Shown piece by piece: positions 25,792 to 64,000 of a DNA stretch of 64,000 nucleotides. The notes under the pieces were generated by a model. That model was not told the DNA's origin, searched no databases, and worked only from the letters and a program-made list of their open reading frames with translations. Each line of letters opens with the position of its first letter. Positions within the stretch are counted from its first letter, which is position 1. The position numbers were made by a program, and so were the translations under genes. Source of the DNA: Alviniconcha marisindica (lineage: Eukaryota > Mollusca > Gastropoda > Provannidae); NCBI GenBank assembly GCA_018857735.1, contig JABMCL010001927.1, positions 1-64,000 on the forward strand, in the 5' to 3' direction.

Positions 25792-28700
25792 GTTTGTGTG
25801 GTTTGGTTTGCCAAGCTACTCCTACCTGTCTGTTCAGTGTTGATGGATGCACATGAATAGGGAGGGGGTGTGGGGGGAGTGAGGGAGAATGAGAGATCTA
25901 GGAAAGAGTATTGATTATTTATAAGTTTTTGTATCTGAGTGGACGAGCAGAGATTGGTGTGCGCATGTCACATTCTGTGCGCGCGCGCGCGTGTGTGTAA
26001 CATGGTTATTATTTTATAATGATAGGTGATGATGGTAGACTGCAATATTGAAGATTCTGTTTGTTTGAAATGTATGCTAGTGACAGTGTGGTTTTTGTTA
26101 TGAGATGTTTGTACAACGCAGTGAGTTTAACTCTGGTTACAGAACAGCGCTTTATAAGAGTTGTTATTACTATTATTATTATTATAATTATTATTACCTC
26201 CCCCCCTTCCCCTGCTCCTGTACCACCCCACCTTCACGTACATTTTGGTTTACAGAGAGAACCGTGTTTATGTAATTTTTACTTTAGTCAGGGAGTCGTC
26301 ATAAATTATCTGGATCAGCTAATGTTGTAACAATAGGAATAATTGTTAATAGTTTATGAATTAATACGGTGCATGCTGCAGAGAAAAACATGTTTACATT
26401 ATGTAATTTTTAGTCAATGAGTTATAAAGGATCTGGCTCAGCTAACATTGTAACAATAATAATTGTTAATAGTATAATTAATTCTGTGTGAAATCAAATA
26501 TGGTCTTCTTTTTTTTAAAGTTGGGGGTGGGGGTGGGATGCAACCCATTGCTTGTCTTGTTGAATCAGATTTTTTAATATGCTTTTGGGGGGGGGGGGGG
26601 GGGGATCATTTTTCATGTCATTCTGATTCTGGAGCAGGTTGCTTAAGTTTCCTGGTTAATGAAATTCATATGAATTGAAGAAAAGGCATATATATATATA
26701 TATATATATATATATATATATATATATATATATATATATATATATATAGGTGACAGCAAAAATCTGAAACAAGAATGACTGCTAGCATTCTAAAATAAGA
26801 TTCAAAAGAACGCTTATTTATTATGACATAGACAACACGATGCAACTTTTCAGGGAAATCCCCTTCTTCAGGCTTCTTCTCCTCTTTGTGTTGTATATGT
26901 CATAATAAATAAGCATTCTTTTGAATCTTTTGTGTGTCTGGATCTTATAGGTGACAGCATTTGCACTAAGCACCAGACTCCCATTCTCTGTTTTCCTAAG
27001 TCCTGTCTTTTGCCTTGTGTTGGTGACAGTGAGGAGGTGTTTTCCATGTACAAGCACAGGGATGTGGTGAAGGGATGTCAGCCTCATCCAGGTGACATTG
27101 TGGAGGCAGCACCCCTGGCTGTGAGTCATGCACGTTTTGTGTGTAGGTGTAAAATAATAATGGTAATGTTAAAGGGGATTTGTGTAGCACCTATCTTCCA
27201 CACTAAGGGGATTTGTACAGCACCTATCGTCCACGCTAAGGGGATTTTTACGGCACCCATCTTCCGCACCAAGGGGATTTGTATGGCATCCATCTTCCAC
27301 CCAAAGGGGATTTGTATAGCACCCATCTTCCGCACCAAGGGGATTTGTATGGCATCCATCTTCCACCCAAAGGGGATTTGTATACACCCATCTTCCACCC
27401 AAAGGGGATTTGTATAGCACCCATCTTCCACCCAAAGGGGATTTGTATAGCACCCATCTTCCACCCAAAGGGGATTTGTATAGCACCCATCTTCCACCCA
27501 AAGGGGATTTGTATAGCACCCATCTTCCACCCAAAGGGGATTTGTATAGCACCCATCTTCCACACAAGGTGGGAGCCCAGAGCGTTTACAGTAACAGTCT
27601 AACACATACAACAAATCAGACACACAGGCGAATATGCGTGCACACACACAAACTAATGGGGGATGGGGGGGGGGGGGGGTAGGAACTTGTTTGGCTCATC
27701 TGTATAAACATAGTAGATTCTTTCTATAATATTTTGCTGAAAACAAATCTTTCTTTTGTTGATTCTGTCTTTAGATATTTACACTTGCTTTGTCTGAATG
27801 CTTTGATGCTGATAGTGAAAGACGCACATGGTTAGTGACATGGTATGAACTGGTTTGTGTGTTGACTTTGCAGGCACTGGATCTGCCCAAAGAGTATTAC
27901 CCCATAACAGACAGCCTGCCAGCAGAGGCCATCACACGGGGCAAGCTCAGCTGTCTACAGCTTGAGGGAATCATTCATGCGGTAAGCCGTCATTGATGAC
28001 TGCTAATTTGCTTAGCTTGAGGGAATCATTCATGCGGCAAGCCATCGTTGATGACTGCTAATTTGCTTAGCTTGAGGGAATCATTCATGTGGCAAGCCGT
28101 CGTTGATGACTGCTAGTTTGCTTAGCTTGAGGGAATCATTCATGCAGTAAGCCATCATTGATGACTGCTGGTTTGCTTAGTTTGAGGGAATCCTTCATGC
28201 GGTAAGTCGTCATTGATAACTATTGGTTTGCGTAGACTGAGCTGTCTCATAAGATGTTGATGGGGGGCCAGAATGCCTCCTTGAGGGTCTATAGCTTGAG
28301 GGAATCATTCGTGCGGTAAACCATCACCGATGACTCGGGGTTTGCTTAGACTTGTTCAGCACTCAGTTGTCTCTGGAGAAGTGCTGATGGGGGACTGAAT
28401 GCCTGCTTTAGGGTCTACAGCTTGAGGGAATCAGCCGTTGTCAGTGACTATTGGTTTGCTTTGTCTTGTTTAACGTCAGATTGTCTCTCTCTCGCAGTAT
28501 TTCCGCCCCAGCTAATAACGGTACCCAGTTTCTGCTACCGTCATTGTGTGTGCGTGCGCATGCGTGTGTCTGTGTGTGCATATAGTGCCTTATGTAAATT
28601 GTTTTGGTAGGACTGTCTTCTACATGTGTATAGAATGTTGTATTTAGGTTAATGTGTATGATGTGAGTGCTCAGGACGTTGATGAGCGCATGATAAATGT

Positions 28701-64000: not shown

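What the first reader, a model, noticed from the sequence alone, without database searches (positions are those of the whole stretch)
27961..62570. Introns of the SBNO-like gene are repeatedly filled by tandem copies of their own exon-intron junctions
At ten or more junctions of one gene a segment spanning the splice site has been copied into the adjoining intron: donor side of exons 3, 10, 26 and 30; acceptor side of exons 8, 20, 21, 24, 27 and 30; and the acceptor tract of exon 7. Copy numbers run from 1 to about 35, and ages from near-identical (exon 26) to badly decayed (exon 30). Ordinary minisatellites would not begin at exon edges this often. The pattern suggests a local process that starts duplications at splice junctions, or selection that tolerates them only when the outermost site still works. 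I know of intron gain by tandem duplication, but not of such a gene-wide pattern.
Basis: seen in the sequence. Interest (0 to 1): 0.92.

Follow-up and report, generated by a model that had tools for sequence, protein, structure and literature searches.

The report
Snail gene with splice-junction repeat arrays
In one gene of a snail, several introns are padded with tandem copies of the neighbouring exon edge; the copies are real, but such repeats are already known from lancelets as 'mirages', and much or all of the pattern is what random tandem duplication in a repeat-rich gene would give.

Summary
The gene is a caenogastropod strawberry notch / FORGETTER 1 homologue (84-85% identical to Littorina, Babylonia and Nucella proteins), with 32 exons that orthologues support. 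In a uniform test, 9 of 62 exon-intron junctions have a copy of themselves in the adjoining intron (control 1 of 124). A tenth, the exon 30 acceptor, passes a targeted alignment. Two of its sites barely enter or stop at the exon (exons 24, 7).

Local repeats cover about 43% of intronic points. If 35 arrays are collapsed to founding units and placed at random, 5-6 should span a junction; 9-10 do (P 0.02-0.10). Counting near misses the surplus is about 2-fold (17 of 35 within 30 nt, about 9 expected, P 0.0015-0.004). These signals fade once simple repeats are collapsed and ancestral introns are assumed shorter by a sixth to a third. Exon-side breakpoints scatter from 4 to 59 nt.

The phenomenon has a name: amphioxus 'mirages'. 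Best reading: ordinary tandem duplication and array expansion, tolerated because the exon-proximal splice site still works. A new phylum as far as my searches show; not a new kind. A mild junction hot spot is not excluded.

The parts
25549..64000 (+). Strawberry notch / FORGETTER 1-like gene, exon 1 (ATG at 25556) to beyond the window end; 32 supported exons (numbered 1-33 with candidate exon 32 at 63828-63854 rejected)
   Evidence: open frame, 84-85% identity over 99-100% to Littorina, Babylonia, Nucella proteins, alignment, Pfam AAA_34, Helicase_C_4, SBNO
27953..29724 (+). Exon 3 donor array: unit about 55 nt (later 114-130), 11 junction copies; exon ends at 27981; up to 29 exon nt in the repeat
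29810..29990 (+).
31439..32444 (+). Array (about 77-nt unit) that forms the exon 7 acceptor tract and stops at the junction (exon starts 32443)
33417..33700 (+). Exon 8 acceptor array: about 97-nt unit, 2 copies upstream of the true acceptor, about 13 exon nt (found by gapped alignment, missed by the ungapped scan)
36008..37449 (+). Exon 10 donor array: 23-nt and about 102-nt units, 19 junction copies, up to 46 exon nt
47466..47700 (+). Exon 20 acceptor: one duplication of 118 nt, about 23 exon nt
47968..49038 (+). Exon 21 acceptor array: 31-nt unit x about 30, with exon-bearing copies at 47968-48004 and 48451-48489; exon starts 49017
52447..52554 (+). Exon 24 acceptor: 56-nt unit x 2, only about 4 nt into the exon (exon starts 52551)
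55059..55538 (+). Exon 26 donor array: 43-nt unit, 11 copies in all (true site included), 96% matches; all 11 keep CACAAG/GTAAATG
57781..59414 (+). Exon 27 acceptor array: 120-150 nt units, 11 junction copies; exon starts 59382
61624..62306 (+). Exon 30 acceptor-side array: units match exon 30 nt 12-56 (decayed, with indels)
   Evidence: not found by the uniform test
62373..62570 (+). Exon 30 donor: 66-nt unit, one clear junction copy (62468-62527), up to 59 exon nt

Best explanation
These are 'mirage'-type minisatellites: short tandem duplications arise throughout the introns of this repeat-rich gene; some founding units happen to straddle an exon edge; unequal exchange or slippage then multiplies some of them. 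A unit that straddles a donor leaves the first (exon-proximal) copy intact, and one that straddles an acceptor leaves the last copy intact, so the coding sequence is unchanged and the mutation is nearly neutral. Shown: the copies, their positions, the conserved protein made by the exon-proximal sites, scattered breakpoints. Inferred: the duplication mechanism, neutrality, and that short exons between long introns (exon definition) steer the spliceosome to the exon-proximal site.
For: Intronic point coverage by local direct repeats is 0.43, and coverage of the gene span is 0.44 against 0.16 in window 1-25000, so many arrays exist that touch no junction: 25 of 35 do not span one by >=5 nt. Founder-unit null: expected 5.1-5.8 spanning, observed 9 (P 0.055-0.10), or 10 when the exon 30 acceptor is added by hand (P 0.021-0.047). 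With simple repeats also collapsed and the non-array part of introns scaled by 1.0, 0.8, 0.6 (total intron 19.6, 16.3, 13.0 kb): expected 6.5, 7.7, 9.4 against 10, P 0.09, 0.22, 0.47. The reach of arrays into exons varies: about 4, 13, 14, 23, 29, 29, 33, 33, 46, 56, 59 nt (the 56 entered by hand), not one fixed offset. 4 donors and 6 acceptors: no clear side preference. Copies are local: at score >=40, 397 self-matches within 3 kb against 15 further apart in the window. The exon-proximal copy encodes conserved residues at the ten junctions. 49 of 54 intronic junction copies keep GT or AG, so there is no visible purge of decoy sites. 35 of 35 donor copies that could be placed (2 of 37 could not) would add an in-frame stop if used to extend the exon.
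Against: Several counts exceed random placement: 12 of 35 arrays enter an exon by >=1 nt (expected 5.8-6.4, P 0.007-0.016); 17 of 35 lie within 30 nt of or across a junction (expected 8.8-9.1, P 0.0015-0.004) and 20 of 35 within 60 nt (expected 11.7-12.0, P 0.003-0.004). With simple repeats collapsed but introns otherwise unscaled these remain at P 0.027, 0.009 and 0.010. I had proposed that old two-copy duplications are easier to see at junctions because one copy is conserved; the data do not bear that out (2 of 12 few-copy arrays span, 8 of 23 many-copy arrays). Site strength alone does not favour the true site at exon 27 (6.6 against up to 13.5 upstream) or exon 10 (4.7 against up to 6.0), so correct splicing needs another rule that I could not test.
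Confidence: 0.78

Rival explanations
1. A local process makes tandem duplications start at or near splice junctions (for example through the base-composition step, R-loops or chromatin at exon edges).
For: Excess of arrays entering exons or near junctions in the founder model with present-day collapsed introns: 12 of 35 against 5.8-6.4, 17 of 35 within 30 nt against about 9 (P 0.0015-0.004), 20 of 35 within 60 nt against about 12.
Against: The excess is about 1.6-2-fold, depends on assumed ancestral intron length, was tested at several cut-offs in a gene picked for looking striking, and the breakpoints scatter over about 4-59 nt of exon. Raw coverage near junctions is low: 4% (donor) and 10% (acceptor) within 25 nt against 52% and 42% at 200-400 nt. 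Non-spanning arrays within 30 nt are 5 against about 3 (P 0.16-0.18).
Confidence: 0.15
2. The arrays are, wholly or partly, assembly artefacts.
For: Highly similar arrays are prone to wrong copy number; no reads could be examined. One lancelet mirage appeared aberrantly assembled in the draft genome (passage in PMC3087553).
Against: Most junction arrays are diverged (roughly 75-96% matches in the rows) with copy-specific changes, which assembly error does not create; three junctions have a single diverged copy (exon 4, exon 20, exon 30 donor).
Confidence: 0.04
3. The internal junction copies are functional: alternative splice sites, or early stages of intron gain.
For: 49 of 54 copies keep GT/AG; a potato gene gained an intron from a boundary-spanning duplication (abstract); the lancelet authors propose a similar route for mirages (passage).
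Against: 35 of 35 placeable donor copies would add an in-frame stop; 7 orthologous proteins show no insertion at these junctions.
Confidence: 0.05

Closest known systems
Amphioxus 'mirages' (Adh3, globins BflGb6 and BflGb9, troponin C; similar repeats in PGBD5)
   Same: Minisatellite-like tandem duplications that span an exon-intron boundary, at 5' and 3' boundaries, units from 10 to 160 nt, many but not all copies keeping AG/GT (passages of PMC3087553; PMC3902484).
   Different: Different phylum (gastropod mollusc); about ten junctions in one gene; no RNA or population data here, whereas the lancelet papers report undisturbed splicing and, at Adh3, somatic instability.
[quoted passage not shown] potato RdRp, Drosophila cases)
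   Same: Tandem duplication that carries splice signals, in the potato case across an intron-exon boundary (abstract of PMC4974935; 12 of 17 passages of PMC2891723).
   Different: No sign that a new intron is made here; existing introns grow.
Introners
   Same: Repeated sequences associated with introns (start of abstract in a search listing, PMC9860276).
   Different: Introners insert copies of themselves in many genes; here copies are local to one junction within this window.

Membership tests
Mirage minisatellites | tandem repeat unit spans an exon-intron boundary | tested here: met
   9 of 62 junctions, control 1 of 124, plus exon 30 acceptor
Mirage minisatellites | both donor and acceptor boundaries can be duplicated | tested here: met
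   4 donors, 5 acceptors, plus exon 30 acceptor
Mirage minisatellites | many copies keep AG/GT signals | tested here: met
   49 of 54 copies
Mirage minisatellites | normal mRNA splicing despite the copies | not testable with these tools
   no RNA data; the exon-proximal sites give a protein that aligns along its length with orthologues
Mirage minisatellites | length polymorphism or somatic instability | not testable with these tools
   one assembled haplotype only
Intron gain by tandem duplication | a new intron is created | tested here: inconclusive
   orthologous proteins show no insertion at the junctions, but their intron positions were not available
Introners | related copies dispersed among many introns | tested here: inconclusive
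   within this window copies are local: 397 self-matches within 3 kb against 15 further apart at score >=40; the rest of the genome could not be searched

The most novel reading that the evidence does not exclude
Exon edges in this snail genome are real hot spots for founding tandem duplications, so introns grow preferentially from their splice junctions outward, and mirages are a general engine of intron lengthening across distant animal phyla.
Probability: 0.12. Interest if true: 0.72.

Novelty: new member of a known kind. Interest (0 to 1): 0.42.

Why it matters
It shows mirage-type arrays in a mollusc, at about ten junctions of one conserved gene, which suggests that the lancelet cases are not a lancelet oddity. 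About 6.9 kb lies in arrays that include a junction, in a gene with 35.2 kb of intron, so the process contributes visibly to intron length. A gene with dozens of decoy splice sites next to the true one is a natural test of how the exon-proximal site is chosen.

Tried and rejected
Candidate exon 32 (63828-63854) was dropped because the 7 aligned orthologues lack it. Gapped self-BLAST gave 11 of 64 junctions covered, one of them an exon 2 donor 'copy' that I dropped as over-extension: a direct test gave 150 of 500 shuffles as good. Exon 9 acceptor was tested and rejected (360 of 500 shuffles). Weak candidates at exon 11 donor, 12 acceptor and 23 donor (best 26-28) were not counted, since 7 of 124 controls reach 26. 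Self-BLAST seemed to lose repeats with short offsets, so an ungapped scan over all offsets 10-3000 was used as well; that scan in turn misses the exon 8 and exon 30 acceptor copies, which have indels. For the array list, two overlapping clusters were left out, one cluster was split after exon 27, the exon 8 array was extended from the gapped result and the exon 24 repeat added, giving 35; the exon 30 acceptor array was set as exon-entering by hand. The raw-coverage test (8 of 64 junctions against 20.6-27.4 expected) goes strongly against enrichment but is inflated by array expansion, so I rest on the founder test. The idea that conserved copies inflate detection at junctions was not borne out. 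The idea that the exon 30 polypyrimidine tract is itself an exon copy is weak (22 of 1000 shuffles as good). Literature: eight searches, two of which named molluscs or gastropods; lists were capped (15 of 58; 10 of 47; 8 of 14). I saw no molluscan mirage in them; the library is open-licence papers only, so this is not proof of absence. The passages shown from a hemocyanin paper, a Conus gene-structure paper and an earthworm metallothionein paper (it mentions intron minisatellites and exon duplications absent from transcripts) held nothing on junction-spanning repeats.

Full report
What was claimed.

The gene. A tblastn with a recalled human SBNO1 sequence located most exons. By splice signals and reading frame I built 33 candidate exons between 25549 and the window end, one open frame. 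The best database matches are gastropod: Littorina saxatilis 85% identity over 100%, Babylonia areolata 85% over 100%, Nucella lapillus 84% over 99%; Pomacea has 72% and Batillaria 73%. Pfam finds AAA_34, Helicase_C_4 and the SBNO domain. The window therefore probably comes from a caenogastropod (inference from identity). An alignment with 7 mollusc orthologues supports the exons except the 27-nt candidate exon 32, which all 7 lack; one of the 7 also lacks exons 13 and 23. This leaves 32 exons and 62 junctions. Searches used the 33-exon model with 64 junctions.

The copies. Scanning offsets 10-3000 without gaps gave 1602 and 1461 segments under two scoring schemes and none in one block-shuffled control. 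A uniform junction test compared 60 nt around each of the 62 junctions with its own intron: 9 have a copy at score 30 or more, against 1 of 124 control comparisons with other introns. They are donors of exons 3, 10, 26, 30 and acceptors of exons 4, 8, 20, 21, 27, with 54 copies in all (the search lists 6 of the 10 intronic exon 26 copies). The exon 4 acceptor is new. The exon 30 acceptor array needs a targeted alignment: it matches exon 30 nt 12-56, 0 of 500 shuffles as good. Exon 24 (about 4 nt of exon) and exon 7 (stops at the junction) are not true junction copies. Ages differ: the exon 26 array has 96% matches and 11 identical CACAAG/GTAAATG cores including the true one, while exons 4 and 20 have one diverged copy each.

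Is it more than chance? Three views. First, raw coverage: local repeats cover 0.43 of intronic points; if junctions were random intronic points 20.6-27.4 of 64 would be covered, and 8 are; coverage is 4-10% within 25 nt of a junction and 42-52% at 200-400 nt (the gapped version, gives 11 of 64, one spurious, against 21-30). This goes against attraction but is inflated by expansion of intronic arrays. Second, founding units: collapse each of 35 arrays to one unit and place it at random where it neither sits inside an exon nor engulfs one. Expected spanning arrays 5.1-5.8; observed 9 (P 0.055-0.10) or 10 with exon 30 acceptor (P 0.021-0.047); counting any contact of 1 nt or more, 12 against 5.8-6.4 (P 0.007-0.016) (the 64-junction version, gives P 0.06-0.11 for 9). 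Including near misses, 17 of 35 lie within 30 nt of or across a junction against about 9 (P 0.0015-0.004) and 20 of 35 within 60 nt against about 12 (P 0.003-0.004); non-spanning arrays within 30 nt alone are 5 against about 3 (P 0.16-0.18). Third, sensitivity: with simple repeats also collapsed, 10 against 6.5 (P 0.09), 17 within 30 nt against 10.1 (P 0.009) and 20 within 60 nt against 13.1 (P 0.010). If the non-array part of introns was also 20% shorter (total intron 16.3 instead of 19.6 kb), P 0.22, 0.05 and 0.08; 40% shorter (13.0 kb), 0.47, 0.24 and 0.37. The P values are nominal; several cut-offs were tried and the gene was chosen for looking striking. I read this as a mild surplus that does not need a special process, though one is not excluded.

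Anatomy against a splice-directed process. The exon-side reach of the arrays ranges from about 4 to 59 nt, donors and acceptors are alike, and many arrays touch no junction (25 of 35 do not span one by 5 nt or more). Copies are local: 397 self-matches within 3 kb, 15 further apart, at score 40 or more in the whole window.

Why it is tolerated. The exon-proximal copy carries the conserved protein sequence at the ten junctions. 49 of 54 intronic copies keep GT or AG; 35 of 35 placeable donor copies (2 of 37 could not be placed) would introduce an in-frame stop if used to extend the exon. By a weight matrix built from this gene's own sites (true sites included), the true exon 27 acceptor (6.6) is weaker than some upstream copies (up to 13.5) and the true exon 10 donor (4.7) weaker than some copies (up to 6.0). 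So strength alone does not pick the true site; exon definition, which favours the pair of sites closest around a short exon, would (established knowledge, not tested here).

What is known. [quoted passage not shown] Troponin C has mirages too, and PGBD5 similar repeats (passages of PMC3902484). A potato gene gained an intron from a boundary-spanning duplication (abstract of PMC4974935). The present case meets the structural features of mirages; RNA and instability could not be tested. Eight literature searches, of which two named molluscs or gastropods, showed no molluscan case in the rows listed.

Limits. One gene cannot settle whether junctions are hot spots.

Noticed in passing
7323-7913 (-): Uninterrupted linker histone H1 reading frame (Pfam PF00538, E 7e-30) with tandem repeats in its lysine-rich tail.
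   Followed up: partly
17581-17774: 63-nt x 3 tandem repeat within an open frame (about 21 residues per unit, SDKDSNDSK..FSPKSC); the consensus unit begins CAGGTGGTGAAG, so it may be a coding repeat or another junction-spanning array in an upstream gene.
   Followed up: no
13564-14694: Large 29/139-nt minisatellite (ACTGCCCAGCCCTCAACA...) outside the gene.
   Followed up: no
1-25000 vs 25549-63438: Local direct repeats cover 0.16 of the flank but 0.44 of the gene span with the same detector; why the gene is so much richer is unexplained.
   Followed up: partly
57781-59382 and 36054-37449: True exon 27 acceptor and exon 10 donor are weaker, by a matrix from this gene's own sites, than some of their intronic copies.
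   Followed up: partly
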